Below are positions 23,877 to 44,041 of a DNA stretch of 44,136 nt, in pieces (positions within the stretch are counted from its first letter, which is position 1; the number at the start of each line of letters is the position of its first letter). The notes beneath the pieces were generated by a model. That model was not told the DNA's origin. It saw only the letters and a program-made list of their open reading frames with translations, and did not search any database. The stretch spans positions 1 through 44,136 of the forward strand of contig JAUNWT010000010.1 in assembly GCA_030540195.1 (NCBI GenBank), read 5' to 3'. The stretch comes from Bacillota bacterium. Its GTDB lineage: Bacteria > Bacillota_I > Bacilli_A > Erysipelotrichales > Coprobacillaceae. The position numbers were made by a program, and so were the translations under genes.

Positions 23877-23892
23877 ATTGATGGGAGGAACT

Positions 23893-25245: not shown

Positions 25246-25876
25246 AAATGAATTGATGAAAAATCTGTCACAAGCGTATTTATTATTGTCTGAAAAAAAG
25301 AAAGATGAATTTTCACGTATTTTAAATCGTTTATTGGCAGTAAATTATTTATGTGGCGGTCGAAAAAGGGATCGAGAAGATTATTATTTTATAAGTGAAA
25401 ATGAACAATTATTTAAAGATTTTCTAATGATGTTGGATTATGATTTTCACTTATACAAAGCAGACCGTGTCATCTCTATTCGTAACCTTAATAACTATAA
25501 TCACTTAAATCTTAATCAAATGCAAACGATTGTTTTATTATTGCTTAGAAAACTCTATTTTCAAAAATCACAAGAGCTTCAAGATACGGAATTTATTCAT
25601 ATTACTTTAGGCGAACTTCATGGAGAAATAGAAGCAACAGGAATTTATAATGAACGTTTAAAGAAAACAGAGTTAAAAACGGTTTACCAATTTTTATCAC
25701 GTTACAATATTTGTGAACGTATTGGGGATTTAAATGAGGATGATTCACGTCTTATTATTTACCCAACAATCAATTATATTTTACCTGTTCAAAAAATAGA
25801 AGAAATCAATCAACGTATCCAACAATTTAAGAAAGGAGATCAATATGAAAACACTAACGAAAGTGAAACTGATTAA
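25238..25876 (+). CDS. jetB: Wadjet defence protein JetB (MukE-like, DUF4194)
   Basis: JetB is the MukE-like winged-helix subunit that bridges kleisin and SMC. The 212-residue product is a mixed helical protein with AVNYLCGGRKRDREDYYFI, a central LNQMQTIVLLLLRKLYF helix and TLGELHGEIEATGIY, consistent with DUF4194. It begins inside jetA (overlap eight bases) with AAGGAGAG upstream, and its last 32 bases overlap the start of jetC, so expression of the three subunits is coupled. Confidence 0.82.
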   Translation: MNKNELMKNLSQAYLLLSEKKKDEFSRILNRLLAVNYLCGGRKRDREDYYFISENEQLFKDFLMMLDYDFHLYKADRVISIRNLNNYNHLNLNQMQTIVLLLLRKLYFQKSQELQDTEFIHITLGELHGEIEATGIYNERLKKTELKTVYQFLSRYNICERIGDLNEDDSRLIIYPTINYILPVQKIEEINQRIQQFKKGDQYENTNESETD

Positions 25877-28800
25877 TTGGCATACTTTTTCAAATACTGA
25901 ATTTGAAATTTATAAAAATGCTTTAATTACAGGAGAAAATGGTACAGGGAAATCAACGATTCTCGATGCAATCCAATATGTACTTACAGTAGGAAAGTGT
26001 AAATTCAATAAAGCGGCAAGTGATATAGGGAATCGTACACTTGAGTCTTATATTCGTTGTAAAACAGGGATTGAAGGACATGAATATGTAAGAAATGGGG
26101 ATGTGACAACTTATATTGCTTTAGAATTTTTTGATGAAAAAACAAAGGATTATCAAATTATTGGAACTGTTATTGATTTACCATCTGGTGGACGTCTTAA
26201 TCGTGATTTTTTTCAAATTCTCGACTGTCAAATAAATGATGTTGTTTTTATTGAAGAAAGAAAAGTTTTAACAAAGAAAGAATTTAAAAATGCACTGACT
26301 AATAATAAACAACAAGGATTTTTTAAAGATACTATTAAAGAGGGAGAAAGGCTTTTTGGAAATGCTTTAGGTGTAAAACCTAAATATTTTGATTTAGTAA
26401 CAAGAGCACTTGCGTTTAAAGCCATTGATAATGTTTATCAATTCATTGTTGATTTTTTACTTAAAGAAGATTTTGTGGATATTCAAAATTTAAGAGATAG
26501 TATTAAACATTATAAAGTTCTTGAAGAAAAACTAAAAATATCTAAGAAAGAGTGTGATGCTTTGGAAGAAGTTGTAAAGCTTCACAACCGTTATTTAGAA
26601 AATGATTTCCAAATTGATATTCTTGATTGCACAAAAGAAAAACTCTATGAAAGAGAATTACGCTTTTTAATTGAAAATAGTCAAAAAAGATATCAAACAA
26701 TTGAAGATCAATTAAAATTCATTCAACAAAAACTCAATCAACTTCATCAAGATGAAGAAAGTTATCAAGAAAAATATCATCAACTCGATCAATCATTAAG
26801 AGAAAATGATACCTATAATTTGAAAAATGATTTAAAGAAGGAATGTGATCGTCTAAAAAAAGAAAAAGAGGATAAACATAAAGAATACCTTGGATTATTA
26901 GATGAACTTCAACAAGAAGCCAAACTTTTAAAAGAATTACATATACAAAAAGCATTTATTAAAGCCATTGAAAATGAAGAATATCAAACAGAAACACTTT
27001 CTACATATTTGCGAAAAGTCGAACAAGAAATTAAGGAAAGAACAAACAAGGCTAATCAACAACTTTCTTCATTGCAATTAACGATTACTCAAAATGTCAA
27101 CCAATATAATCAATATCAAGAAGAATATACTTCTTTGAAAGAAAATCAACTCTATTATCGTAAAGAAATCCAAGAATTGATTCATTTATTAAATGAACAA
27201 CTTACAAAACACTTTGGAAAAGAAATCGAAGTAAAACCATTATGCGAATACATCGAAGTCAAAGATGAAAAATGGCGTAATGCTTTAGAAGGTTATTTAA
27301 ATAGTCAAAGATTTGATTTAATTATTGAACCAGAATATTTTGAATATGCTCTTCTTGTTTATGAAGAATATAAAAATAAAAGAGGAATCTATGGCGTAGG
27401 GATTGTGGATGTTGCCAAACTTGCTAAATATGAAGATGTTGCTTTAAAGGAAACTTTGGCAAATCAATTAGAATGTAAAAATACATATGCAAGATGGTAT
27501 GTCAATATGTTACTTTCAAGAGTTCATTGTGTAGATGATGTCACACAACTAAGAAATTATCCAACAGCGATTACACCAACTTGTATGCTTTATAAAAACT
27601 ATACAGCAAGAGCACTCAATCCTCGTATTTACAATAAACCTTATATTGGTTTAGGGGCTATCAAGATTCAATTAAAGACAATTGAACAACAATTAGAAGT
27701 TTTACAACAAGAAATTAAACAACAAAAATTAGAACTTGAAACATTAAAAAATACACAATCTTTATTAAAAAAATCAAATGCCGATAAAATACTTTATCGT
27801 ATTGATCTTCTTGATAAATATCATAATCTTGAAAAAGAATATCAAGAAGTCAATGAGCGTTATCAAAAATTAGAACTTGATGATTCAATCATTTCTTTAC
27901 AAGAAGAATGTGATACGGTAAAGAAACAACTTGATCAAACAAAAAAAGAAAAAGAAAATGCTTTAATGAAAAAAGGAAGTCTTGAAAATAATCTTGAAAC
28001 ATTTAAAGAACAGCTTGAACAAACTCAAGAAAGCTATGATGTTTTACATGAAAAAATCATTCAATTTGAAATGGATCATTTAGAACTTTCACAAAAAGCA
28101 GATCAACAAGTTATTGATTATTTAAAACGCTTTGTAAAAGATTTTAAAGCGATGAAAAATGAAATTGATTATCAAAAATCAGTTTCTCAAAAGAAAGCTC
28201 GTCAAGTAGAATCACAAATTGAAATGAAGATGAAAGACTATAATGATGAATATAATATAGGCTTTGAAAATTCTTTAAAAGATAATGAAAGTTATAAACA
28301 AAGATATCATCAATTAAAAGATATGGATATTGTATCTAAAGAAGAAAAAACAAGACAAGCAAAATTAAAATGTGAAGAATCATTTAAAACTTCTTTTATT
28401 TCGGGATTAAATGAAAAAATTGAAAATGCGAAGAAAGATATTCATGAATTAAATAAAGGATTAGCACAAAGAGATTTCAATGGAGAAACTTACGAATTCT
28501 GTGTTTCACCAACTTCAAGAGATGATTTTAAAGAGTACTATAAGATCATTCAATCTGGTAAAGAATATATGGCAAATAATCTTTTATCAGAAACATTAAA
28601 TGAGAGTCAAAGAAGAATTATGGATGAGTTGTTTGTTAAACTTTCTTCAGTAGAAAATGATCAAGAAACAGAAAAGATGTTACTTGAATATACGGATTAT
28701 CGTAATTATTTAGATTATGATATAAAAATAAAATATGATAGTGGTGATTTTGCTTATTTTTCAAAAGTCAATAAAGAAAAATCAGGTGGAGAAACGCAAA

Positions 28801-29087
28801 CACCATTCTATGTAATTATGGCAGCAAGTTTTGAACAAGTTGTACGTAATCGAAATCAAAATGAAGGTTTTGGTTGTGTTGTTATTTTTGATGAAGCGTT
28901 TAATAACATGGATGAACAAAGAATACAAGAAATGATCAAGTTCTATAATGAACGTGAAATACAAACATTTATTGCAGTACCACCATCAAGAGCAAGTACA
29001 ATTATTCCTTATGTCAATACAAGATTACTTGTTATTAAACAAAATCAACATTCCTTTGTCGAAGGCTTTAGAGATGAAGAGTTATAG
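25845..29087 (+). CDS. jetC: Wadjet SMC-like ATPase JetC
   Basis: JetC is the MukB-like motor that extrudes DNA loops in Wadjet. The 1080-residue protein has Walker A GENGTGKST at 30-38, long glutamine- and lysine-rich coiled-coil arms (roughly 220-430 and 640-900) around a hinge-like globular region (about 440-610), the ABC signature SGGETQTPF at 980-988, and Walker B with D1016-E1017 in VVIFDEAFNNMD. All ATPase residues appear intact. GAAAGGAGAT precedes the ATG inside jetB. It overlaps jetD by 14 bases. Confidence 0.9.
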   Translation: MKTLTKVKLINWHTFSNTEFEIYKNALITGENGTGKSTILDAIQYVLTVGKCKFNKAASDIGNRTLESYIRCKTGIEGHEYVRNGDVTTYIALEFFDEKTKDYQIIGTVIDLPSGGRLNRDFFQILDCQINDVVFIEERKVLTKKEFKNALTNNKQQGFFKDTIKEGERLFGNALGVKPKYFDLVTRALAFKAIDNVYQFIVDFLLKEDFVDIQNLRDSIKHYKVLEEKLKISKKECDALEEVVKLHNRYLENDFQIDILDCTKEKLYERELRFLIENSQKRYQTIEDQLKFIQQKLNQLHQDEESYQEKYHQLDQSLRENDTYNLKNDLKKECDRLKKEKEDKHKEYLGLLDELQQEAKLLKELHIQKAFIKAIENEEYQTETLSTYLRKVEQEIKERTNKANQQLSSLQLTITQNVNQYNQYQEEYTSLKENQLYYRKEIQELIHLLNEQLTKHFGKEIEVKPLCEYIEVKDEKWRNALEGYLNSQRFDLIIEPEYFEYALLVYEEYKNKRGIYGVGIVDVAKLAKYEDVALKETLANQLECKNTYARWYVNMLLSRVHCVDDVTQLRNYPTAITPTCMLYKNYTARALNPRIYNKPYIGLGAIKIQLKTIEQQLEVLQQEIKQQKLELETLKNTQSLLKKSNADKILYRIDLLDKYHNLEKEYQEVNERYQKLELDDSIISLQEECDTVKKQLDQTKKEKENALMKKGSLENNLETFKEQLEQTQESYDVLHEKIIQFEMDHLELSQKADQQVIDYLKRFVKDFKAMKNEIDYQKSVSQKKARQVESQIEMKMKDYNDEYNIGFENSLKDNESYKQRYHQLKDMDIVSKEEKTRQAKLKCEESFKTSFISGLNEKIENAKKDIHELNKGLAQRDFNGETYEFCVSPTSRDDFKEYYKIIQSGKEYMANNLLSETLNESQRRIMDELFVKLSSVENDQETEKMLLEYTDYRNYLDYDIKIKYDSGDFAYFSKVNKEKSGGETQTPFYVIMAASFEQVVRNRNQNEGFGCVVIFDEAFNNMDEQRIQEMIKFYNEREIQTFIAVPPSRASTIIPYVNTRLLVIKQNQHSFVEGFRDEEL

Positions 29088-30288
29088 AAAAGAAATTTTA
29101 GAATATTTTATAAAAAGTTATGAAAATAGTGCCTATGGAAATGGCTTATCATCAAGTCCAAGAAGGATCACTTTTAATCTTAATAAAAAGTATCCAAATT
29201 ATGGTGGCAGTCGTTTTTATGAATTGACAGAGGAAATTGAAAAGGTTGTTTTTCAATTATACGAAGAGGGGTTTGTTGAATTTTCAAATAAGAGTATCTA
29301 TGGTAAAAGAGTGCTTGAATTTGTTAATAATGAAGAAAATATAGAAAAGATTTATCATGAGTTACAAAGAAAATCTTTAAAAGAGAAAAAAGAGAAATAT
29401 TTGTTGTATTTAGAAAAATATGATGATTCTTTCTTTACTGAATTTCAAAATGTTATAAAGAAAAAAGTTCAAAATAACAAGGGGTTATCACCTTATTTAA
29501 AAACAAACGATGTTGAAGATTTAGAAAATGTTATGAAAATACTGCAAGGAATGATAAATCAAGAAGAAGAGATTTCTTTTAGAAAGTTTTCTGAAAAAGT
29601 ATTAGGGGATACCAAAAAATTAGAAAAATATAAAAATAAAATTTATCATATTATTAAAGATTTTTATGATGATTCGATTGAAAACGTAGATGATGCCTTT
29701 GAACTATTCTATATACGTAAAAATCCTGCGTATGTTTATTTAAAAGGAAATGCTATTTTCCAAATAAATAATCAAGTTATTGATTTAAATGAAATGAATC
29801 ATTATTTTGTTTTACCAAGTATTTGTATCAAAGATTTGAAAATTAAGGATATTGAAGCAAAACAAGTAATGACTATTGAAAATTTAACATCTTTTCATGA
29901 TGTGTCTTTAAAAGATACTTTCTCTGTTTTTACAAATGGATTTCATAATCATGCTATAGAAGAATTTTTAAAATGTCTTTATGATTTTTTAGGAGAAAGA
30001 GTTTCTTATCTTCATTTTGGTGATATTGATGCAGGTGGTTTCCATATTTATGAATCCTTAATAAAGAAAACGAAAATTCCATTTCAAACATATAAAATGA
30101 ACGTTGATATGTTAAAGAAGTATAAAGCTTATACAAAACCTTTAACTGAAAATGATCGCAAGAGATTGCTTTTATTTGAAAAAAGGCACCAAGAAGTTAT
30201 TGGCTATATGTTAAAACATAATGTAAAATTAGAACAAGAGATCATAGGAGAAGAAGACGATGAAAGAAAAAACACTTACACGTATTAG
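29074..30288 (+). CDS. jetD: Wadjet nuclease JetD (DUF3322/DUF2220, Toprim)
   Basis: JetD is the topoisomerase VI-like nuclease that cleaves DNA held by JetABC. The 404-residue product has an N-terminal DUF3322-like helical region and a C-terminal DUF2220 Toprim domain. The Toprim acid residues are present: Glu269 in IENLTSF and the DxD pair Asp317/Asp319 in FGDIDAGGFHIYE. ATG at 29074 with GAAGG upstream gives a normal length; longer readings extend far into jetC. Its last 29 bases overlap a MazG-like gene. Confidence 0.87.
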   Translation: MKSYRKEILEYFIKSYENSAYGNGLSSSPRRITFNLNKKYPNYGGSRFYELTEEIEKVVFQLYEEGFVEFSNKSIYGKRVLEFVNNEENIEKIYHELQRKSLKEKKEKYLLYLEKYDDSFFTEFQNVIKKKVQNNKGLSPYLKTNDVEDLENVMKILQGMINQEEEISFRKFSEKVLGDTKKLEKYKNKIYHIIKDFYDDSIENVDDAFELFYIRKNPAYVYLKGNAIFQINNQVIDLNEMNHYFVLPSICIKDLKIKDIEAKQVMTIENLTSFHDVSLKDTFSVFTNGFHNHAIEEFLKCLYDFLGERVSYLHFGDIDAGGFHIYESLIKKTKIPFQTYKMNVDMLKKYKAYTKPLTENDRKRLLLFEKRHQEVIGYMLKHNVKLEQEIIGEEDDERKNTYTY

Positions 30289-33108: not shown

Positions 33109-34044
33109 ATGTTAGATTCATATCAAAGAAAAATAGATTATATGCGTATTTCCATTACAGATCGTTGTCACTTTGAATGTACTTATTGTAAAAGTGATCA
33201 TCCACAAAAATTAAAACATCAAGATATTTTATCTTATGAACAATTATTGCTTATTGTTGATCAAGCTATCCAATTAGGAATCAATAAATTTAAAATTACA
33301 GGTGGCGAACCAACGCTAAGAAAAGATTATCTTTTCTTTATTAAAGAATTAAAAAAACGAAATGTTCAAGTCACTTTAACGACCAATGGTTCTTTATTTA
33401 CTAAAAATGATTTAGATAGTTTAAAAATAATAGGGATAGATGGCATTAATTTTTCAATAGATACCCTTGATCCAAAAGAGTATTTTTTATTGACGCAACA
33501 AGATTGTTTAGAAACAGTTTTAGATAATCTGTTTTACGCCTATCAACTTAAAATTCCTGTAAAAATAAATTGTGTGATAGATGATACCTTTCATTTAAAA
33601 CGTTTTGATAATCTATTGGAATTGATTAAAGATAAAAAAATTGCAGTACGTTTTATTGAACTCATGCCTTTAAATAAAGAACAACGAAATCAAAAAATAA
33701 GAGATGTTATAAATTATTTAAAAAAATATCCAATTCAAGAATGTTTAGATAAATTAGGAAATGGACCAGCCCATTATTATACAATAGAAGGTTATCAAGG
33801 CTATATAGGATTTATCGAAGCACTTCATCATAAGTTTTGTAGTCAATGCAATCGTCTTCGTTTAACAAGTATAGGAAAGATCAAACCATGTTTGTTTTAT
33901 GAAGAAATGTATGATTTAAAGCCGTATCTTAATAATACAAACCAATTGCGTTTACATCTTGAAAAAGCAATCGAATTGAAACCAAAAGAGCATCATTTTG
34001 AAGAGGATGTTTCTTATACAAAAATGAATGAAATAGGGGGTTAA
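33109..34044 (+). CDS. moaA: GTP 3',8-cyclase MoaA
   Basis: MoaA is the radical-SAM enzyme that starts molybdopterin synthesis from GTP. The 311-residue protein has the N-terminal [4Fe-4S] motif C20-x3-C24-x2-C27 (RCHFECTYC), ITGGEPTLR, and the second cluster in FCSQCNRLRLTSIGKIKPC. It ends in the conserved Gly-Gly needed for activity in the family. It is somewhat shorter than the usual 325-335 residues. GGAGGG precedes the ATG. First gene of the molybdenum-selenium operon. Confidence 0.95.
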   Translation: MLDSYQRKIDYMRISITDRCHFECTYCKSDHPQKLKHQDILSYEQLLLIVDQAIQLGINKFKITGGEPTLRKDYLFFIKELKKRNVQVTLTTNGSLFTKNDLDSLKIIGIDGINFSIDTLDPKEYFLLTQQDCLETVLDNLFYAYQLKIPVKINCVIDDTFHLKRFDNLLELIKDKKIAVRFIELMPLNKEQRNQKIRDVINYLKKYPIQECLDKLGNGPAHYYTIEGYQGYIGFIEALHHKFCSQCNRLRLTSIGKIKPCLFYEEMYDLKPYLNNTNQLRLHLEKAIELKPKEHHFEEDVSYTKMNEIGG

Positions 34045-34045
34045 T

Positions 34046-34525
34046 ATGGATTTTACACACTTTGATGAAAATGGAAATGCTATTATGGTAGATGTGTCTT
34101 CAAAAGATACAACCCAAAGAACAGCTGTGGCTTATGGTGAAATTTATGTAGGTAAAGAAATTTTGCAAAAAATTGAAAACCATCAAATGAAAAAAGGTGA
34201 TGTTCTTTCAGTAGCAAGAATTGCTGGAATTATGGCAGTAAAGAAAACCAGTGATATTATTCCTTTATGTCATCCTTTACTCTTAAGTAAGATTACGGTA
34301 GATTTTCATATCAATCATGAAAAAGAATTGATTGAAACTTGTTGTCAGGTTACCTGTTTAGGTAAAACAGGGGTTGAAATGGAGGCACTTCATGGGGTAA
34401 GTGCAACCTTGCTTACAATCTATGATATGTCGAAGGCTGTTAGTAAAGAAATGGAAATTAGAAATATTCATTTAATAAGTAAAAGTGGTGGAAAGAGTGG
34501 TGATTTTAAATGGCAGGACAAGTAA
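34046..34525 (+). CDS. moaC: Cyclic pyranopterin monophosphate synthase MoaC
   Basis: MoaC converts the MoaA product into cyclic pyranopterin monophosphate, the molybdopterin precursor. The 159-residue protein shows KKGDVLSVARIAGIMAVKKTSDIIPLCHPLLLSK and the C-terminal GVEMEALHGVSATLLTIYDMSKA, both standard. It is one base after the moaA stop and overlaps the next gene by 16 bases. Confidence 0.96.
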   Translation: MDFTHFDENGNAIMVDVSSKDTTQRTAVAYGEIYVGKEILQKIENHQMKKGDVLSVARIAGIMAVKKTSDIIPLCHPLLLSKITVDFHINHEKELIETCCQVTCLGKTGVEMEALHGVSATLLTIYDMSKAVSKEMEIRNIHLISKSGGKSGDFKWQDK

Positions 34526-35451
34526 AAGCAATTTGTTTGAGCAAAAAAAAGGGTACAGCAAAAACACCTGTTGAAAAAATTGAAGTTATTGAAAATCATG
34601 GCTTTAAAAATGATGCCCATGCCGGTTCTTGGCATCGCCAAGTTTCTTTATTATCTTATGAAACAAGAGAGGAATTTAAACAAATGGGTTCTACTGTTGA
34701 AGATGGTGCCTTTGGCGAAAATTTACTTATTTCAGGAATTGATTTTAATGAAATTGAAATAGGGACCTGTCTTAAAATTGGTGATGTTATCCTTGAAATT
34801 ACTCAACTTGGAAAAAGCTGCCATAATCATTGTGCTATTTATCATCAAGTTGGAAAATGTATCATGCCAACCAACGGCTTATTTTCACGTGTTTTAAAAG
34901 GGGGAGAGATTCAATTGAATGATTCAGTTGAAGTTTTAAAAGAAAAAGATAAACGTTTACGTGTGGCGATTTTAACACTTTCTGATAAAGGAAGTCAGGG
35001 ATTGAGAGAAGATTTAAGTGGACCTTATATTCAAGAATATTTTAAAGAAAAAGGTTATTATGTAACTTCTTATGAAATCTTACCGGATGAACAAAAGCTA
35101 ATTGAACAAGCGTTGATCAATTTAGCAGATCGTTGTCATAATGATTTAATTATTACGACGGGTGGAACAGGATTAAGCATGCGTGATGTCACACCAGAAG
35201 CAACGCTAAAAGTTGCAACAAGAAATGTACCAGGTATCAGTGAAGCGATTCGTTATGAGTCAATGAAATATACCAATCGTGCCATGCTTTCAAGAGGCGT
35301 ATCTGTTTTAAGAAACCAAACGTTGATTATTAATTTGCCAGGAAGTTTAAAAGCTGTTAAAGAAAGTTTAGAAATTATTATTGATCCTTTAAAACATGGG
35401 TTAGAAATTTTAAAAGGAGAGGCACATGATTGTGCTCGCAAAGATGGTTGA
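34510..35451 (+). CDS. MOSC domain fused to MogA/MoaB-type molybdopterin adenylyltransferase
   Basis: A 313-residue two-domain protein. Residues 1 to about 145 form a MOSC domain (FKNDAHAGSWHRQVSLLS, GAFGENLLISG, and Cys104 in GKSCHNHCAIYH), a fold that handles sulfur or metal on molybdenum cofactor. Residues about 150 to 313 form a MogA/MoaB domain (RVAILTLSDKGSQG, TTGGTGLSMRDVTPE) that adenylylates molybdopterin before molybdenum insertion. The ATG follows GGTGATTTTAA within the end of moaC. The fusion joins cofactor activation and sulfur/metal handling in one chain. Confidence 0.9.
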   Translation: MAGQVKAICLSKKKGTAKTPVEKIEVIENHGFKNDAHAGSWHRQVSLLSYETREEFKQMGSTVEDGAFGENLLISGIDFNEIEIGTCLKIGDVILEITQLGKSCHNHCAIYHQVGKCIMPTNGLFSRVLKGGEIQLNDSVEVLKEKDKRLRVAILTLSDKGSQGLREDLSGPYIQEYFKEKGYYVTSYEILPDEQKLIEQALINLADRCHNDLIITTGGTGLSMRDVTPEATLKVATRNVPGISEAIRYESMKYTNRAMLSRGVSVLRNQTLIINLPGSLKAVKESLEIIIDPLKHGLEILKGEAHDCARKDG

Positions 35452-37546: not shown

Positions 37547-38563
37547 ATGAAAGAAATCAAAACTGAAGATGCCATTGGCAGTGTACTCTGCCATGACATC
37601 ACAGAAATTGTTAAAGACCAAAGAAAAGGCCCTCGTTTTAAGAAGGGCCATATTATTAAAGAAGAAGATATTGAAGTATTATTGAATTTAGGAAAAGAAC
37701 ATCTTTATGTTTTTGAAAAAGATGAAACAATGATGCATGAAAATGACGCAGCTGAAATATTATGCAATCTTTGCTTCAATGATTATATGGAAAAAAGTGG
37801 TATTAGTGAAGGAAAGATTGAACTTAAAAGTACGATCGATGGATTGTTTAAAGTAAATCGAGAAGAGCTTTTTAAAGTCAATTCTTTTGGACAAATGATG
37901 ATTGCGACAAGACAAGGAAATGTACCTGTAAAAAAAGGAGATAAACTTGCCGGTATGCGTATTATTCCACTCGTTATTGAAAAAGAAAAAATGCAACAAA
38001 TCCAAGAGAAAGTTCAAAAACCTATTTTAAAAATCATGCCTTATCAAATAAAAACAGCAGGAATTATTACTACAGGCTCTGAGGTTTATAAAGGGAGAAT
38101 CAAAGACACCTTTACTCCAGTCATTGTAGAAAAATTAAAAGAGTATGGAGTAGAAGTTACTTACCATAGTTTATCATTAGATGACCATGAAATGACAACA
38201 AGCAAAATCAATGAAGCTTTAAAACAAGGGGTGGATCTTGTTTTATGTACAGGGGGTATGTCTGTTGATCCTGATGATAAAACACCACTTGCGATAAAAA
38301 ATACAGGTGCCAAAATTGTAAGCTATGGTGCACCCGTTCTTCCTGGAGCAATGTTTTTATTAAGTTACAAAGGTGATGTGCCAATTGTAGGTTTACCAGG
38401 GTGTGTCATGTATTCCCGTCGAACAATTTTTGATGTTGTTTTACCAAGACTTCTTGCTAAAGATCCAATTACGAGTGATGAACTTGCTTCACTTGGTGAA
38501 GGCGGACTTTGTTTAAATTGTCCTGTTTGTACTTTTCCAAATTGTGGACTTTCGAAAGGATAA
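37547..38563 (+). CDS. MoeA-like molybdopterin-binding protein with C-terminal cysteine cluster
   Basis: A 338-residue protein of the MoeA/MoCF-biosynthesis fold. The central part contains AGIITTGSEVYKGRIKDTFTP and DLVLCTGGMSVDPDDKTPLAI, the molybdopterin-binding motifs. It is shorter than MoeA (about 400) and the usual last domain is absent. Instead it ends with GGLCLNCPVCTFPNCGLSKG, which places Cys at 322, 325, 328 and 333. Such proteins occur in loci of selenium-dependent molybdenum hydroxylases; the cluster may bind metal, Fe-S or selenium. No good ribosome binding site is seen; the start, one base past the modA stop, suggests re-initiation. Confidence 0.85.
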   Translation: MKEIKTEDAIGSVLCHDITEIVKDQRKGPRFKKGHIIKEEDIEVLLNLGKEHLYVFEKDETMMHENDAAEILCNLCFNDYMEKSGISEGKIELKSTIDGLFKVNREELFKVNSFGQMMIATRQGNVPVKKGDKLAGMRIIPLVIEKEKMQQIQEKVQKPILKIMPYQIKTAGIITTGSEVYKGRIKDTFTPVIVEKLKEYGVEVTYHSLSLDDHEMTTSKINEALKQGVDLVLCTGGMSVDPDDKTPLAIKNTGAKIVSYGAPVLPGAMFLLSYKGDVPIVGLPGCVMYSRRTIFDVVLPRLLAKDPITSDELASLGEGGLCLNCPVCTFPNCGLSKG

Positions 38564-38566
38564 AAG

Positions 38567-38917
38567 ATGACTTATAAAAATCCACAGAAATTTGATATGA
38601 AGATTCGTCTTTATAACCAAGAAAAAAGTTTTGGCAAAGGTGTCTATGAATTAATGAAAAAAACGCAGACTTTTGGTTCTTTATCAGGAGCTTACAAAGA
38701 TATGAAAATGTCAAATTCGAAGGCTTGGAAAATCTTAAAGCGTGCGGAAGAAGATTTAGGGATGCCTCTTGTTGAACGTGTCAGTGGTGGTAAAGATGGT
38801 GGTGGCAGTAAACTTACTCAAGAAGGCGAATTATTATTAGAAAAATATGAAAAATTCATTCAAGAAATGAATACATATGCAAATAATCGTTTTAAGGAGA
38901 TTTTTGAAGATGAATAA
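38567..38917 (+). CDS. ModE-type winged-helix regulator lacking a molybdate-binding domain
   Basis: The 116-residue protein matches the N-terminal DNA-binding domain of ModE and related LysR-type helix-turn-helix proteins: FGSLSGAYKDMKMSNSKAWK and LVERVSGGKDGGGSKLTQEG. It lacks the TOBE/Mop domains with which full ModE senses molybdate. It may still regulate the operon by binding the dyad before moaA, with a different partner as sensor. AAAAG precedes the ATG. It overlaps the next gene by eight bases. Confidence 0.85.
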   Translation: MTYKNPQKFDMKIRLYNQEKSFGKGVYELMKKTQTFGSLSGAYKDMKMSNSKAWKILKRAEEDLGMPLVERVSGGKDGGGSKLTQEGELLLEKYEKFIQEMNTYANNRFKEIFEDE

Positions 38918-39140
38918 GCAGGAATATTTAATTATTACTTTTCATTCATTAGATGATGCAATGGATTTAGAGGCAAAACAAACATCTTCTATGAAGGGAC
39001 GTTTGATACCTAAACCATCTGTTATTGAGGCTGGATGTGGCATGTGTTTTTCTTGTCAAAATAAAGAAATAGACAAGTGGAAGATTTTTCTTGAAGAAAA
39101 TCAAATTCATTATGAAAAAATAGTAAAGGTTGTGTTTTAA
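38910..39140 (+). CDS. DUF3343 putative selenium/sulfur carrier protein
   Basis: A 76-residue protein with FHSLDDAMDLE at the start and the triple-cysteine motif CGMCFSC (Cys43, Cys46, Cys49). DUF3343 is a putative Se/S carrier, found with selD and yedF in labile-selenium loci. The ATG at 38910 has AAGGAG at good spacing; an upstream in-frame reading inside the ModE-like gene was rejected. Its stop is immediately followed by selD. Confidence 0.85.
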   Translation: MNKQEYLIITFHSLDDAMDLEAKQTSSMKGRLIPKPSVIEAGCGMCFSCQNKEIDKWKIFLEENQIHYEKIVKVVF

Positions 39141-40160
39141 TTGAAAGAAAAGCTTTATTGTAAAAGTGGTGGATGTAGTGCTAAATTAGGAGCTAAAAAA
39201 TTAAGTCATATTTTAGAAAAAATCGATAAATATCCTAATCCCAACTTACTGGTTGGTTTTGATAGTCATGATGATGCTTCTGTTTATCAAATAAATGAAC
39301 ATCAAGCGATTGTTTCAACTCTTGATTTCTTTCCACCGATGGTAGAAGATCCCTATTTATTTGGACAAATTGCAGCTACGAATGCTTTAAGTGATGTTTA
39401 TGCCATGGGTGGAACACCTTTAACTGCTTTAAATATTGTTTGTTTTAACGATCAAGATGATTTAAATATTTTAGGAAAGATCATTGAAGGTGGAAATGAT
39501 AAATTAAAAGAAGCAAAAGTTGTTTTGTCAGGAGGACATTCAATCAAAGATGAATCAACAAAATATGGTTTAAGTGTAACTGGAATCGTAGATCCAAGTA
39601 AAATGATTCAAAACAATGGGGTACAAATTGGTGATACGTTAATTCTTACTAAAAAATTAGGAGTAGGATTAACATTAAATGCTTACCGTTTAAATGATGC
39701 ACGTCAAGAAATACTTGAGGAAGTTTTTAAGAGTATGACGACACTTAATAAATATGCTTTTGATGTTTTAAATAAGTATACAATCCATGCTTTAACGGAT
39801 GTGACAGGGTTTGGGCTACTTGTTCATTTAGATGAAATGCTTGACAAGAAAGCGACTGCGCTTTTAGATAAAGAAAGTATTCCTTATTTTAAGGATTGTC
39901 CTTATTATGTTGATGAATTCTATTTAAGTGGAGGAGCACAACATAATCGAAATGCGATGAAAAATAAAGTTTGTTTTGATGAAGAAAACTTTGTTTTAGA
40001 AGAAATTCTTTATGATCCACAAACGAGTGGAGGACTTCTTGCCAGCGTTGCAAGTGATGATTTAGAAAATATTTTAAATGATTTTAAACAAGCAGGGCTT
40101 GCTTGTTATGTAATTGGGAAAATTATTGACAAAGATCAATTTGATATTTATGTACGTTAG
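39141..40160 (+). CDS. selD: Selenide, water dikinase SelD
   Basis: SelD makes selenophosphate from selenide and ATP. The 339-residue protein has the active-site loop KSGGCSAK with Cys12 and Lys15, corresponding to the essential Cys and Lys of E. coli SelD; the second Cys of that loop is Ala here, and no selenocysteine is used. GHSIKDESTKYG and LTDVTGFGLLVHLDEM are also typical. TTG start directly follows the previous stop, with AAAGG upstream. selA and selB are absent here, so it is an orphan-type SelD serving the molybdenum cofactor. Confidence 0.93.
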   Translation: MKEKLYCKSGGCSAKLGAKKLSHILEKIDKYPNPNLLVGFDSHDDASVYQINEHQAIVSTLDFFPPMVEDPYLFGQIAATNALSDVYAMGGTPLTALNIVCFNDQDDLNILGKIIEGGNDKLKEAKVVLSGGHSIKDESTKYGLSVTGIVDPSKMIQNNGVQIGDTLILTKKLGVGLTLNAYRLNDARQEILEEVFKSMTTLNKYAFDVLNKYTIHALTDVTGFGLLVHLDEMLDKKATALLDKESIPYFKDCPYYVDEFYLSGGAQHNRNAMKNKVCFDEENFVLEEILYDPQTSGGLLASVASDDLENILNDFKQAGLACYVIGKIIDKDQFDIYVR

Positions 40161-40169
40161 GAGATTATT

Positions 40170-40739
40170 ATGGAAATTTTAGATGCTCGAGGACTTGAAT
40201 GTCCTCTACCAGTTGTGAAAACAAAAGAATTATTAAAAGAAATTGATAAAATAAAAGTACTTGTTGATAATGAAATTGCGATTGAAAACTTGACAAAATT
40301 TGCCGGAGTAAGACATTATCAAATCGTTACAGGTGATGATGGAGATGACTTTTATGCCATTATTGCTAAAGAAGGCATTGATGAAGAATTAGATTTTAAT
40401 GAAAAAAGTGGTGATGTCGTTGTTGTTTCAAGTAAAACAATGGGAAGTAACGAAGAACTTGGGGCTATTTTAATGAAATCATTTATCTTTGCACTTACAA
40501 AACAAGATCAATTACCTAAAGAAATGATTTTCTATAATGAAGGTGTTTTCCTTACTACAAGTGAAGGAGATATTTTAAATGATTTAAAATATCTTGAAAG
40601 TCAAGGGGTTGATATTGTAAGTTGTGGAACTTGTTTGGATTTCTTTAAACGTAAAGAGTTATTACAAGTAGGGACTGTCACAAATATGTATGATATCGTT
40701 GAAAGGATGGAAAAGGCTGAAAAAGTCATTAAGCCATAA
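40170..40739 (+). CDS. yedF: Sulfurtransferase-like selenium metabolism protein YedF
   Basis: A 189-residue protein with an N-terminal TusA/SirA-like domain (EILDARGLECPLPVVKT, reactive Cys11) and a C-terminal DsrE-like domain ending SCGTCLDFFKRKELLQVG. YedF-type proteins are restricted to organisms with SelD and are thought to carry or deliver selenium. GGAG lies before the ATG and the gene is nine bases after selD. Confidence 0.93.
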   Translation: MEILDARGLECPLPVVKTKELLKEIDKIKVLVDNEIAIENLTKFAGVRHYQIVTGDDGDDFYAIIAKEGIDEELDFNEKSGDVVVVSSKTMGSNEELGAILMKSFIFALTKQDQLPKEMIFYNEGVFLTTSEGDILNDLKYLESQGVDIVSCGTCLDFFKRKELLQVGTVTNMYDIVERMEKAEKVIKP

Positions 40740-40744
40740 GAAAA

Positions 40745-41554
40745 ATGAAAGATTTGGTTATTGTAAGAGGTGGTGGCGATATTGCTACAGGAACCATTTA
40801 TAAGCTATATAAATGTGGCTTTAAAGTCTTGATTTTAGAAATTGAAAAGCCAAGTGCCATTCGAAGAAATGTTGCTTTTTGTGAAGCTATTTATGATACA
40901 CAAAAACAAGTAGAAGATGTGACTTGTTATCTAGCCCATGACTATGATGAAGCGAAAAAATTTTTAATGGAAAATAAGGTGACCTTATTGATAGATCCTA
41001 AAGCTCAAGCAATCAATTATTTCAAACCAGAGGTTGTTGTTGATGCTATTCTTGCTAAAAAAAATTTAGGAACAACAAAAGAAATGGCACCAATTACGAT
41101 TGCTTTAGGTCCAGGATTTGTTGCGGGTAAAGACGTCGATGTTGTTATTGAAACAATGCGAGGACATAAACTTGGAAGAACGATATATCAAGGGGCTGCT
41201 TTAAAAAACACGGGTGTACCAGGAATTATTAAAGGCTATGGGAAAGAACGTGTGATTCATTCTCCAGTTGCAGGAACTGTAAAACATGTAAGACATTTAA
41301 CGGATATTGTTAAAAAAGGTGAAGTGATTGCTTATGTTGATCAAACACCTATTTATGCGACAATGGATGGATTACTTCGTGGCTTGATTAAAGAAGGTTT
41401 TGTGGTTACTCAAGGTTTTAAAATGGCAGATATTGATCCACGTGAAGATGAATATGAAAATTGTTTTACTATTTCTGATAAAGCACGTTGTATCGCTGGT
41501 GGTGTCATAGAAGCTATCTTTTATTTAAGAGGACATAGAAATGATTTATCTTGA
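40745..41554 (+). CDS. yqeB: Selenium-dependent molybdenum hydroxylase system protein, YqeB/EF2563 family
   Basis: The 269-residue protein starts LVIVRGGGDIATGTIYKLYK, a Rossmann-like glycine motif, followed by AFCEAIYDTQKQVEDVTC and a lipoyl-like segment (HSPVAGTVKHV). The EF2563 family is a marker of selenium-dependent molybdenum hydroxylase systems, with unproven function in maturation of the labile selenium cofactor. It overlaps the cysteine desulfurase gene by 14 bases. Confidence 0.9.
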   Translation: MKDLVIVRGGGDIATGTIYKLYKCGFKVLILEIEKPSAIRRNVAFCEAIYDTQKQVEDVTCYLAHDYDEAKKFLMENKVTLLIDPKAQAINYFKPEVVVDAILAKKNLGTTKEMAPITIALGPGFVAGKDVDVVIETMRGHKLGRTIYQGAALKNTGVPGIIKGYGKERVIHSPVAGTVKHVRHLTDIVKKGEVIAYVDQTPIYATMDGLLRGLIKEGFVVTQGFKMADIDPREDEYENCFTISDKARCIAGGVIEAIFYLRGHRNDLS

Positions 41555-42659
41555 TCAAGCAGCAACAAGTTTTCCTAAAATTAAAGAAGTTCAAGATGCA
41601 GTAATAGATTGTATGAATCATTGTACCAATGCGAATCGTTCAACCAGTACAACGAGTTTAAATGCAAGTCGATTGATTTATCAAACACGCAAACTTATTA
41701 AAGAATATTTTCATGTACCTCCAGATGGATGTGTAGTTTTAAATAGTGGAAACACAGAAAGTCTCAATACATGTATTAAAGGTATTCTTAAAAAAGGAGA
41801 TCATGTCATTACGACCTATGCTGAACATAACAGTGTTTTAAGACCGCTTTATCAATTAGAAAAAGCAAATATCATTACATTATCGATTACTTCACCTACA
41901 GTAGAGGATATTAAAAAACATCTTCAAAATAAGACAAAATTAATTATTGTAACACATAGTTCAAATGTGACGGGTGAAATTTATCCAATTGCTGAAATTG
42001 GAAAACTTGCACATGAACACGATATTTTAATGATGAGTGATGTCGCACAAAGTGCGGGACATCTTTCAATTGATATGGAAAAGATGAATTTAGATATTTT
42101 ATGTTTTAGTGGTCATAAAGGTTTGCTTGGAAATAGTGGGATTGGCGGTTTTTGTCTTAGCTACCCTATAGAAATGGAACCTTTAATAAGCGGTGGAACC
42201 GGAATGGATTCGTTTAATCATTTTCAAAGCGATTACTATCCAGAACATGTTGAAGCAGGAACACGTAATATGACAGGAATTGCGTCTTTAAAGGCAGGGG
42301 TTTCTTATTTAATGAAATATCAAGATGAAAAAATAGCGTATGCAAATGAGCTTGTTGAACTTCTATATAATGGTTTAAAAAATATTCCTCAGGTTATTTT
42401 GTATGGTACTTTCAAAGAGAGAACACCGATTCTTGCCTTTAATATAAAAGGAATGGATAGTTTTCAAGTGGCGGAGCTTTTAAATACTGAATATGATATT
42501 GCGATTCGTTGCGGGACGCATTGTACACCCTTGATGCATCAACATCTCAATACAGTAGAAAGTGGGCTTGTAAGAGTATCGCCTTCATTTATGAATACAA
42601 AAGAAGAAATACAATTTTTCATTAAAGCAATTCAAGAAATTAGTGAGGATAATTTATGA
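41541..42659 (+). CDS. Class V aminotransferase / cysteine desulfurase-like protein
   Basis: A 372-residue PLP enzyme that probably releases sulfur or selenium from (seleno)cysteine. The N-terminus IYLDQAATSFPK, the PLP-binding Asp in SDVAQSAGH (Asp167), the Schiff-base Lys193 in FSGHKGLLG and Cys328 in RCGTHCTPL (likely catalytic) are all present; Cys324 is nearby. In this context it should feed selenide or sulfide to SelD or to the molybdenum cofactor. It overlaps both neighbours (14 bases with yqeB, four with the fused gene). Confidence 0.9.
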   Translation: MIYLDQAATSFPKIKEVQDAVIDCMNHCTNANRSTSTTSLNASRLIYQTRKLIKEYFHVPPDGCVVLNSGNTESLNTCIKGILKKGDHVITTYAEHNSVLRPLYQLEKANIITLSITSPTVEDIKKHLQNKTKLIIVTHSSNVTGEIYPIAEIGKLAHEHDILMMSDVAQSAGHLSIDMEKMNLDILCFSGHKGLLGNSGIGGFCLSYPIEMEPLISGGTGMDSFNHFQSDYYPEHVEAGTRNMTGIASLKAGVSYLMKYQDEKIAYANELVELLYNGLKNIPQVILYGTFKERTPILAFNIKGMDSFQVAELLNTEYDIAIRCGTHCTPLMHQHLNTVESGLVRVSPSFMNTKEEIQFFIKAIQEISEDNL

Positions 42660-44041
42660 TAATTAGTGTTATTGGTTCAGGTGGAAAGACAACAAAAATA
42701 AAACAGTTAAAAGATCAATATTTAAAAGAGGGTAAGAGTGTTTTAATGACAACTTCTACCCATATGAAAATTGAAGAAAATACATTAGTCAATCCAAGTT
42801 ATGAAGAAATTATAAATGAAATTAAAAAGCATGGGTTTGTACATGCTGGTAGCAGAGCCAAAAATCAAAAAATTAAAGCTTTAGATGATGACTTATTAAA
42901 AAGATTAAAAAAAGAAATAGATGTGATTTTAATTGAAGCGGATGGGTCTCATGGATTGCCTTTAAAGTATCCTAGAGATCATGAACCTGCGGTAGATAAA
43001 GACAGTGATGAAATTATTTTAATTACTTCTTTAAAGGGACTTGGAAAACCTGTTCAAGATGTTGTCCATGGGTATCAAGAAATGAAAGTTGATGAAAATC
43101 AAATAGTAGATTGTCTTTTTGTTCAACAACTTATTAATATCTATTTAGAAAAAATAAAAAAATATAATATTCCCATTAAAATTCAAGTAAACGGGGCAAG
43201 TACGCTTTATGAAAAAGCATTGGCTTCGTTATTGGAAAATCAAAAAGAAGTAACACTTATCAATGAAGAATGGTTTTTACCACAACCAAAACTTGTTATT
43301 TTGGGTGCAGGACATGTGAGCCAATATGTAAGTAAACTTGCTTCTATGTTAGATTTCTATACAATTGTTATTGATGAAAGAAAAGAATTTGCATGTAAAG
43401 AATTATTTCCAAAAGCCAATGAAATTCATTGTGTTTCTTTTGATAAAGCGGACTTTTATTTTCCTAAGGAAACAAATACATGTTATGTTATTGTCACAAG
43501 AGGGCATAAAGATGACCGCTTGTGTTTAAAAAAGACACTTTCTCTACAAAGTCTTTATGTAGGAATGATAGGAAGTAAAAAGAAAGTTAAACAAACCTAT
43601 GATGCTTTATTAGAAGAAGGCTATCAACAAGATGCACTTGATAAAGTCCATGCACCTATTGGACTTCCTATAAAAGCGGTAACTCCTGCAGAAATTGCTG
43701 TGAGTATCATGTCTGAAATTATAGCTATAAAAAATGAGCATCAATACTCAAGTATGACAAGTGACTTATTAGAAGTTCAAGGTGATGGTGTTTTATGTAT
43801 TATTACTGATAAAAAAGGATCAACACCACGTACTGTAGGTAGTATGATGTTTGTAAGTGAAAAAGGACTTGTTGGTTCAATTGGCGGAGGAAGAGAAGAA
43901 TATCAAGCTATTTTAGATGCCAAGGATTGCCAAAAGGTAATGATGAAGCATTATGAATTAAATAATAATGAAAGTGCCAATTTAGGAATGATTTGTGGAG
44001 GAAGTAATGATGTTTTATTTCTCCCTATTAAGCAGCATTAG
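42656..44041 (+). CDS. YqeC-XdhC fusion protein for selenium cofactor maturation
   Basis: A 461-residue fusion. Residues 1 to about 205 are YqeC-like with a P-loop (SVIGSGGKTT, Lys11) and VILIEADGSHGLPLKYP. Residues about 212-345 form the Rossmann domain of XdhC (LVILGAGHVSQYVSKLA, VGMIGSKKKV), and about 360-461 form the XdhC/CoxI domain (CIITDKKGSTPRTVGSMMFV, GSIGGGREE, NLGMICGG). This order is permuted relative to classical XdhC, where the CoxI domain comes first. The SGGC motif's Cys is Arg. It should guide sulfur or selenium insertion into the hydroxylase. Confidence 0.88.
   Translation: MIISVIGSGGKTTKIKQLKDQYLKEGKSVLMTTSTHMKIEENTLVNPSYEEIINEIKKHGFVHAGSRAKNQKIKALDDDLLKRLKKEIDVILIEADGSHGLPLKYPRDHEPAVDKDSDEIILITSLKGLGKPVQDVVHGYQEMKVDENQIVDCLFVQQLINIYLEKIKKYNIPIKIQVNGASTLYEKALASLLENQKEVTLINEEWFLPQPKLVILGAGHVSQYVSKLASMLDFYTIVIDERKEFACKELFPKANEIHCVSFDKADFYFPKETNTCYVIVTRGHKDDRLCLKKTLSLQSLYVGMIGSKKKVKQTYDALLEEGYQQDALDKVHAPIGLPIKAVTPAEIAVSIMSEIIAIKNEHQYSSMTSDLLEVQGDGVLCIITDKKGSTPRTVGSMMFVSEKGLVGSIGGGREEYQAILDAKDCQKVMMKHYELNNNESANLGMICGGSNDVLFLPIKQH

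What the first reader, a model, noticed from the sequence alone, without database searches (positions are those of the whole stretch)
38488..38563. MoeA-like protein ends in a CxxCxxCx4C cluster
Cys322, Cys325, Cys328 and Cys333 replace the last MoeA domain and lie next to the DUF3343, SelD and YedF genes. I associate similar GGLCLxCxxCxFPxC tails with selenium-molybdenum loci, but their role is not established to my knowledge. The cluster could hold Zn, Fe-S, or be the acceptor of a selenium atom during cofactor maturation.
Basis: partly seen in the sequence, partly recalled or inferred. Interest (0 to 1): 0.5.

Follow-up and report, generated by a model that had tools for sequence, protein, structure and literature searches.

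The report
MoeA stand-in with cysteine tail
The four-cysteine tail is real and deeply conserved, but it does not follow selenium use: it belongs to an uncharacterised, rebuilt version of the molybdenum-inserting protein MoeA that probably loads molybdenum for enzymes such as xanthine dehydrogenase in anaerobic bacteria, many of which show no ordinary MoeA.

Summary
The 338-aa gene at 37547-38563 ends in CX2CX2CX4C (Cys322/325/328/333); each cysteine is kept in 117 of 120 homologues.

The selenium reading fails for the tail. It is intact in 19 of 19 sampled genomes that carry the gene but lack SelD; the three tail-less copies among the 120 lie in SelD-positive genomes.

The protein is a rearranged MoeA: probably subdomain I without subdomain II, an extra domain, domain III with its acids invariant, and the tail in place of domain IV. 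No MoeA_N protein was found in 38 of 88 carrier genomes, the window's own included. Of these 38, 36 have a molybdenum hydroxylase; the only two DMSO-reductase-family hits are NuoG-like fusions. ModA (molybdate uptake) lies near it in 63 of 118 loci and TupA (tungstate) in none; at separate MoeA loci the figures are 0 and 8 of 18.

Best reading: a molybdenum insertase mainly for hydroxylases; the tail is probably a metal site, Fe-S rather than Zn (inferred). My paper searches found no study of the family.

The parts
37547..38563 (+). MoeA-like gene (338 aa), the subject of the finding
   Evidence: Translation; PF00994 MoCF_biosynth is the only Pfam hit; no NCBIfam model above its cut-off for this protein
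37547..37717 (+). residues 1-57: probable MoeA subdomain I without the subdomain II insertion
   Evidence: VIA-align Z 9.1, 57 aligned, rmsd 1.9 to gephyrin E; Z 8.2, 57 aligned, rmsd 1.8 to a MoeA structure, residues 27-176. Caution: RNA polymerase chains reach Z 7.2 over the same stretch, and Foldseek gives MoeA chains only E 0.08-0.13. Weak profile hit of positions 28-55 to Pyrococcus MoeA, E 0.048
37736..38044 (+). residues 64-166: extra domain, no firm relative found
   Evidence: Model pLDDT 95; only weak structural matches to AMP and pyrimidine nucleoside phosphorylase chains, Z about 5
38060..38452 (+). residues 172-302: MoeA/MogA domain III (molybdopterin-binding domain)
   Evidence: PF00994 E 1.6e-25; VIA-align Z 17.6 to MoaB2 and Mog; hhalign to canonical MoeA prob 98.7, E 1.7e-16; E179, D212, D244 kept in 120 of 120
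38495..38560 (+). residues 317-338: tail GEGGLCLNCPVCTFPNCGLSKG, CX2CX2CX4C
   Evidence: Each Cys in 117 of 120 homologues; pLDDT below 50 in the apo model; no Pfam match; no PDB profile match better than E 0.24
33109..34044 (+). moaA
   Evidence: TIGR02666 279.3 bits, just under its cut-off of 284.05
34046..34525 (+). moaC
   Evidence: Named from sequence by recall, no family search; its relatives cluster with the operon
34510..35451 (+). MOSC-MogA fusion
   Evidence: PF03473 plus PF00994
35426..37545 (+). modB, modC, modA (molybdate uptake)
   Evidence: modA: PF13531 E 2.5e-46; modB and modC named by recall and by clusters
38567..38917 (+). ModE-like HTH protein, DNA-binding part only
   Evidence: TIGR00637 60.3 bits, below its cut-off of 98.5
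38877..39140 (+). DUF3343 (Se_S_carrier)
   Evidence: PF11823 E 1.3e-15
39141..40160 (+). selD
   Evidence: TIGR00476 365.2 bits, cut-off 125
40170..40739 (+). yedF
   Evidence: TIGR03527 209.8 bits, cut-off 110
40745..41554 (+). yqeB
   Evidence: TIGR03309 379.6 bits, cut-off 220
41541..42659 (+). cysteine desulfurase / selenocysteine lyase-like
   Evidence: TIGR01977 385.8 bits, cut-off 377
42656..44041 (+). YqeC-XdhC fusion
   Evidence: PF19842 plus PF13478 plus PF02625

Best explanation
The gene encodes a member of an uncharacterised MoeA-type family that works as a molybdenum insertase: it takes adenylated molybdopterin from MogA (fused to MOSC in this operon) and molybdate brought in by ModABC, and makes Mo-molybdopterin, which XdhC and MocA pass on mainly to molybdenum hydroxylases such as the xanthine-dehydrogenase-like enzyme of this genome. 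Shown by computation: the rebuilt domain order (subdomain I less firmly than domain III), the invariant MoeA-type acids, the absence of canonical MoeA from many carriers, and the neighbourhoods. Inferred: the reaction itself and the hand-over. The tail belongs to the form found here in anaerobe-rich groups, whether or not the host has SelD. Inferred, weaker: four thiolates with ferredoxin-like CX2CX2C spacing bind a metal site ([4Fe-4S] more likely than Zn) that takes the place of MoeA domain IV at the edge of the active site or docks a partner.
For: MoeA/MogA domain III by profile (prob 98.7) and by fold (Z 17.6); E179, D212 and D244, aligned to conserved MoeA acids, in 120 of 120 rows. Probable subdomain I by fold. 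No MoeA_N match in 38 of 88 carrier genomes, the window's own included; 36 of these 38 have PF02738 hydroxylases, and the only two PF00384 hits among them are GltD-NuoG-like fusions without PF01568. Of 50 carriers with MoeA, 41 have PF00384. In the 215-genome sample its closest partner is the hydroxylase: 31 of 34 carriers, p 1e-23. ModA in 63 of 118 of its loci (one locus counted twice), TupA in 0; separate MoeA loci 0 and 8 of 18. Relatives in a Se gene cluster (Peptoclostridium: FAD-2Fe2S-this-yqeC-mocA-yqeB), beside XdhC and a nucleotidyltransferase inside a Microvirga xanthine-dehydrogenase gene cluster, or fused to a MobA/MocA-like domain in Azospirillum. Tail: 19 of 19 SelD-less carriers keep it.
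Against: Eleven of 88 carriers show no hydroxylase: nine of these have MoeA and PF00384 proteins, G319 has only a NuoG-like PF00384 hit, and G301 has none of the three, so the protein is not hydroxylase-only. Thirteen of 44 hydroxylase genomes lack it, and eight of those lack MoeA too. Some of its loci also hold genes of the other branch: FdhD in 4, MobA in 9, formate-dehydrogenase type in 11 of 118 (of the 38 loci of the class sample, 8 have MoeA nearby). The four alphaproteobacterial relatives aligned have lost the TTGxE and TGGMS motifs, so part of the wider family may not insert Mo. At the PG loop, where five of eight canonical MoeA aligned have Lys, this family has Leu. No biochemical data. 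Tail: no match to any known site, and three tail-less copies show that it can be lost, in G520 even where no MoeA was found.
Confidence: 0.6

Rival explanations
1. The tail accepts or relays selenium during maturation of the Se-dependent hydroxylase cofactor.
For: In the window it sits near DUF3343, SelD, YedF and YqeB; the protein co-occurs with SelD (28 of 34) and YqeB (25 of 34), and with SelD even within hydroxylase genomes (p 0.003).
Against: The tail is intact in 19 of 19 SelD-less carriers; the three tail-less copies lie in SelD-positive genomes. Five of 30 YqeB genomes have no such protein. In 80 named loci, some of them short, yqeB and selD lie nearby in 11 and 7.
Confidence: 0.05
2. 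The protein is not an insertase but a carrier or scaffold that holds molybdopterin or finished cofactor and hands it to MocA and XdhC; Mo insertion in MoeA-less genomes happens in another way.
For: Fusion to a MobA/MocA-like domain in Azospirillum and adjacency to XdhC and a nucleotidyltransferase in Microvirga; these relatives have lost MoeA motifs; MoeA subdomains II and IV are missing, and the proposed MoeA active site lies between III/IV of one chain and II of the other (PMC9458074, passages).
Against: In the 120 rows, nearly all from Firmicutes, the acids aligned to MoeA's are invariant; 38 of 88 carriers show no MoeA_N protein, although the MOSC-MogA type of gene lies in 34 of 81 loci.
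Confidence: 0.25
3. The tail is a structural zinc site with no redox part.
For: Four cysteines close together; the best, insignificant, PDB profile match is a CW zinc finger (E 0.24).
Against: CX2CX2C is the usual spacing of [4Fe-4S] ferredoxins and rare for Zn (recalled). The five relatives read here from alphaproteobacteria (four) and Paenibacillus (one) have no tail; these groups being largely aerobic (recalled), this fits an oxygen-labile site better (inference).
Confidence: 0.3
4. The tail carries persulfide and delivers the sulfido ligand of molybdenum hydroxylases.
For: XdhC-like genes lie in 55 of 118 loci; hydroxylases carry an essential labile sulfur or selenium (PMC2276186; PMC2997495, listing and passages).
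Against: The tail is kept in all 11 carriers without a PF02738 match (L003-L005); in R. capsulatus sulfuration takes place on XdhC by NifS4 (PMC2997495, passages).
Confidence: 0.1

Closest known systems
MoeA / Cnx1 E-domain / gephyrin E-domain (Mo insertase)
   Same: Domain III with its acids; probable subdomain I fold; operon with MoaA, MoaC, MogA, ModABC; the only MoeA-type protein found in 38 of 88 carrier genomes
   Different: No PF03453 or PF03454 match, no subdomain II, an extra domain 64-166, Cys tail instead of domain IV, 338 aa instead of about 400
MogA / MoaB (molybdopterin adenylyltransferase fold)
   Same: Domain 167-308 has the same fold (Z 17.6)
   Different: Has an N-terminal half and the tail; a separate MOSC-MogA gene is present in the same operon
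MoeA-PBP and the duplicated archaeal MoeA1/MoeA2 (PMC11733289, passages)
   Same: A paralogue of MoeA that may separate Mo from W handling
   Different: No PBP domain; in the methods passage I read, that study took hits with all three MoeA Pfam domains, which this family lacks
SDMH accessory proteins YqeB, YqeC, MocA/YgfJ (PMC2276186, PMC2432076)
   Same: Shares loci with them; PMC11448449 notes a 'molybdopterin cofactor biosynthesis protein' (CDR20291_1976) beside yqeC in C. difficile; whether it is this family was not tested
   Different: Not in the part of Table 1 that I read in PMC2276186; no 'MoeA' in the text of that paper or of PMC2432076; its tail does not track SelD

Membership tests
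Canonical MoeA | MoeA_N (PF03453, subdomains I-II) recognisable | tested here: not met
   No PF03453 hit; PF03453 finds nothing in the own genome G000
Canonical MoeA | MoeA_C (PF03454, domain IV) | tested here: not met
   Only PF00994 hits; the chain ends 36 residues after it, in the Cys tail
Canonical MoeA | MoCF domain III with the MoeA-type acids | tested here: met
Canonical MoeA | Subdomain I fold | tested here: met
   Z 9.1 over 57 residues at rmsd 1.9; RNA polymerase chains reach Z 7.2 over the same stretch, so the margin is modest; Foldseek E only 0.08-0.13 for MoeA chains
Canonical MoeA | Insertion of Mo into MPT-AMP | not testable with these tools
   Needs enzymology or complementation
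Selenium-specific maturation factor | Tail present only with SelD | tested here: not met
   19 of 19 SelD-less carriers have the tail
Known metal-binding tail or domain | Match of the tail to a described motif | tested here: inconclusive
   No Pfam hit with a limit of E 10; PDB profile best E 0.24
Molybdenum-hydroxylase maturation module | Co-occurrence and co-location with hydroxylase, XdhC, MocA | tested here: met
   77 of 88 carriers have PF02738; of 118 loci 26 have a hydroxylase, 55 XdhC, 26 MocA nearby; relatives. Exceptions: 11 of 88

The most novel reading that the evidence does not exclude
Anaerobic Firmicutes have a second class of molybdenum insertase, lacking MoeA subdomains II and IV and bearing a C-terminal Fe-S-type tail. 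It feeds molybdate from ModABC to the hydroxylase (MocA/XdhC) branch, while canonical MoeA, next to TupA, FdhD, MobA and formate dehydrogenase, serves the tungsten or bis-MGD branch: two insertases that keep Mo and W apart in one cell, with some species living on the new one alone.
Probability: 0.35. Interest if true: 0.75.

Novelty: new variant of a known kind. Interest (0 to 1): 0.55.

Why it matters
MoeA performs the last step of molybdenum cofactor synthesis, and surveys that ask for its Pfam domains would call many gut anaerobes incomplete. If this protein is their insertase, their cofactor pathway has no gap at that step, purine breakdown by gut bacteria gains a dedicated maturation factor, and the question of how cells keep Mo and W apart can be tested with two clean gene deletions. 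The tail offers a small, mutable handle on the mechanism.

Tried and rejected
Selenium-specific tail: rejected by the SelD counts. Selenocysteine in the tail: the stops of the three tail-less genes are TAA (L006), TAG (L165) and TAA (L185), none of them TGA. Tail loss as assembly error: unlikely for L165 and L185, whose stops abut or overlap the next gene; not excluded for L006. Known tail motif: no match. Profile comparison of the N-terminus with MoeA: weak (prob 13.7, E 0.002); the fold comparison is better evidence, though RNA polymerase chains come within two Z units. Extra domain 64-166: no firm relative listed, which is no proof of a new fold. Hydroxylase-only role: rejected, 11 of 88 carriers show no PF02738 match. 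Strict rule 'PF00384 means MoeA': not clean; seven PF00384 genomes of the 215 have neither MoeA nor this protein, and some PF00384 hits are NuoG-like fusions (only two were checked). Paper searches that found no study of the family: (open-licence PMC papers only).

The genome G333 is in both sets and is counted once among the 88; its locus is counted twice among the 118 (L093 and L149). The 18 separate MoeA loci were chosen because MoeA lies away from this gene; of the 8 class-sample loci where MoeA lies beside it, 4 have ModA and none TupA. SelD lies near one of the 18 MoeA loci. Genomes are related, so the p-values overstate independence. G307's partial MoeA hit was counted as MoeA.

Full report
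WHAT IS THERE. The gene runs from ATG 37547 to the stop at 38561-38563 and encodes 338 aa. Its end reads GEGGLCLNCPVCTFPNCGLSKG, with cysteines 322, 325, 328 and 333, exactly as described. Upstream lie moaA, moaC, a MOSC-MogA fusion, modB, modC and modA; downstream a ModE-like HTH gene, DUF3343, selD, yedF, yqeB, a selenocysteine-lyase-like gene and a YqeC-XdhC fusion (moaC, modB and modC named by recall and by clusters). Pfam finds only PF00994 in the protein. In NCBIfam the best model scores under its cut-off for this protein, and over 20 members nearly all the models that respond are for molybdopterin-domain or CinA-type proteins.

IS THE TAIL REAL AND CONSERVED. I removed the tail from the query and scanned the collection of one genome for each of 84,980 species. 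The best 80 of at least 441 relatives came from Lachnospiraceae, Oscillospiraceae, Peptostreptococcaceae, Acetobacterium, Synergistales and others. Seventy-eight of 80 have C-x2-C-x2-C-x4-C; the remaining two are cut by the contig end. In 215 Clostridia genomes drawn evenly around [Clostridium] asparagiforme, 34 genomes hold 38 full-length copies and 36 of these 38 have the tail. In 295 genomes of the window's own phylum five have a full-length relative, the window included; four have the tail and L006 has not. In the combined 120-row alignment (78 + 37 + 4 + the window; L149 left out as a repeat of L093) each tail Cys and Pro331 is kept in 117 rows.

SELENIUM. SelD over its curated cut-off is present in 28 of the 34 carriers of the 215-genome sample and in 42 of a second set of 55 carriers: 69 of 88 together. 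The 19 SelD-less carriers all keep the tail. The three tail-less copies (G213/L006, G438/L185, G520/L165) are in SelD-positive genomes; G438 and G520 also have YqeB over its cut-off, and L006 lies beside a yqeB-like gene. The stops of L165 and L185 abut or overlap the next gene, so these look like true short genes. They lie apart in the tree, on long branches whose placement is unsure. So, in this sample, the tail neither needs SelD nor is needed where SelD is present. The whole protein does go with SelD (p 5e-15) and YqeB (p 2e-20), but most tightly with PF02738 molybdenum hydroxylases (31 of 34, p 1e-23). A residual link to SelD within hydroxylase genomes remains (28 of 34 against 3 of 10, p 0.003).

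WHAT THE PROTEIN IS. AlphaFold2 gives a confident body (mean pLDDT 86) and a disordered apo tail (residues 318-338 under 50). Residues 167-308 have the MogA/MoaB/MoeA-domain-III fold (Z 17.6), and hhalign finds the same match to canonical MoeA (prob 98.7, E 1.7e-16). The N-terminal 166 residues, predicted alone (pLDDT 95), match MoeA subdomain I in residues 1-57 with subdomain II missing (Z 9.1, 57 aligned, rmsd 1.9). The margin is modest: RNA polymerase chains reach Z 7.2 over the same stretch, Foldseek alone gives MoeA chains E 0.08-0.13, and the profile comparison is weak; a PDB profile search does put Pyrococcus MoeA first (E 0.048). Residues 64-166 have no firm match. E179, D212 and D244 align to conserved acids of MoeA and are kept in 120 of 120 rows; PMC9458074 (passages) names Asp228 of E. 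coli MoeA as a ligand of the active-site Mg, and by recall this corresponds to D212. [quoted passage not shown]

WHAT IT DOES. Canonical MoeA_N was not found in the window's own genome (97.1% complete) nor in 37 other carriers: 38 of 88, including isolates such as Anaerobutyricum hallii, Peptostreptococcus anaerobius, Schaedlerella arabinosiphila and Anaerotruncus massiliensis. The control genomes responded in 11 of 14. Thirty-six of these 38 have a PF02738 hydroxylase. Only two have a PF00384 hit, and both are GltD-NuoG-like fusions without the dinucleotide-binding domain PF01568. PMC6147048 (passages) lists NuoG as a Mo-independent relative. Among the 50 carriers with MoeA, 41 have PF00384 (Fisher p 7e-14; relatedness not corrected, and some of these hits may be NuoG-like too). 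In the window's own genome the only PF02738 enzyme is xanthine-dehydrogenase-like (best model NF043082, 615 bits, under its cut-off of 780), behind a nucleobase/xanthine permease and followed by a MocA-like gene (112.6 bits, under the cut-off of 186.45).

NEIGHBOURS. In 118 loci of the family (38 + 80, one locus twice) ModA lies nearby in 63, XdhC in 55, MocA in 26, a hydroxylase in 26, YqeB in 23, SelD in 11, formate-dehydrogenase type in 11, MobA in 9, FdhD in 4, TupA in none. In 18 loci of canonical MoeA lying apart from it in the same genomes: TupA in 8, FdhD 7, MobA 7, formate-dehydrogenase type 6, SelD 1, and no ModA, XdhC, MocA, hydroxylase or YqeB. Representatives were named; those for ModA, FdhD, formate dehydrogenase and MocA pass a curated NCBIfam cut-off, those for TupA (217.8 of 400), MobA, XdhC and the hydroxylase do not. 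This suggests two branches, a molybdate-hydroxylase branch and a tungstate/formate-dehydrogenase branch, with some mixing.

WIDER FAMILY. A plasmid search found 34 records, of which I read six. Peptoclostridium acidaminophilum has the tailed form between hydroxylase subunits and yqeC-mocA-yqeB. Four alphaproteobacterial proteins are 26-27% identical, without the tail, with GVGGLL at its place; one lies beside XdhC genes and a nucleotidyltransferase inside a Microvirga xanthine-dehydrogenase gene cluster, one is fused to a MobA/MocA-like domain in Azospirillum. These four have lost TTGxE and TGGMS. A Paenibacillus copy keeps those motifs but ends GYGGLHGC. The double glycine before the tail is kept in all 120 rows and in these relatives.

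HOW IT MOST LIKELY WORKS. Shown by computation: architecture, conservation, MoeA vacancy, neighbourhoods, independence of the tail from SelD. Inferred: it inserts Mo into MPT-AMP and serves mainly hydroxylases. Inferred with less support: the tail binds a metal, [4Fe-4S] rather than Zn because CX2CX2C is the ferredoxin spacing (recalled) and because the five relatives read here from largely aerobic groups (recalled) have no tail; it may cap the active site in place of domain IV. Eleven carriers without a hydroxylase match, nine of them with MoeA and PF00384 proteins, show that the role is not confined to that enzyme class.

LITERATURE. PMC2276186 (first quarter of the text and passages) and PMC2432076 (passages) define the Se-hydroxylase marker genes; 'MoeA' does not occur in either. 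PMC11448449 (passages) shows yqeB but not yqeC to matter in C. difficile and notes a molybdopterin cofactor gene beside yqeC. PMC5322559 (passages) treats DUF3343. PMC11733289 (passages) surveyed MoeA; the methods passage I read asks for all three Pfam domains. PMC2997495 (passages) describes MoeA-MogA feeding XdhC and MobA. Searches for papers on this family.

Noticed in passing
window 23878-30288: Four genes in a row match PADLOC models for JetA, JetB, JetC and JetD (JetA1-D1 models): a Wadjet system, probably type I.
   Followed up: partly
window 42656-44041: YqeC and an XdhC-like protein are fused in one reading frame, joining a Se-cofactor marker of unknown function to the cofactor-insertion chaperone.
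   Followed up: no
window 34510-35451: MOSC domain fused to MogA.
   Followed up: no
window 38567-38917: ModE-like repressor reduced to its DNA-binding part, 116 aa, right after the finding.
   Followed up: no
L198 7977-9593 (Azospirillum lipoferum plasmid): Distant tail-less relative fused to a MobA/MocA-like NTP transferase, with the MoeA motifs of domain III lost.
   Followed up: partly
L006, L165, L185: Three relatives end at GGLL, GGFL or GGLLAGRKC, just where the Cys tail would begin; two of the stops abut or overlap the next gene.
   Followed up: partly
residue 286 (window 38402-38404): A cysteine in the GLPGC loop, where canonical MoeA has Asn (LSGNP), is kept in 116 of 120 rows and in the four alphaproteobacterial relatives aligned. 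It is nearly as conserved as the tail, reaches further across the family, and could be catalytic.
   Followed up: no
215-genome sample: G352, G426, G502, G525, G534, G536: Genomes with a PF02738 match but without a match for MoeA_N, this family or PF00384; their Mo supply is unexplained.
   Followed up: no
L224 (own genome contig C63): Nucleobase/xanthine permease, XDH-like FAD, 2Fe-2S and Mo subunits and a MocA-like gene in a row, away from the window.
   Followed up: yes
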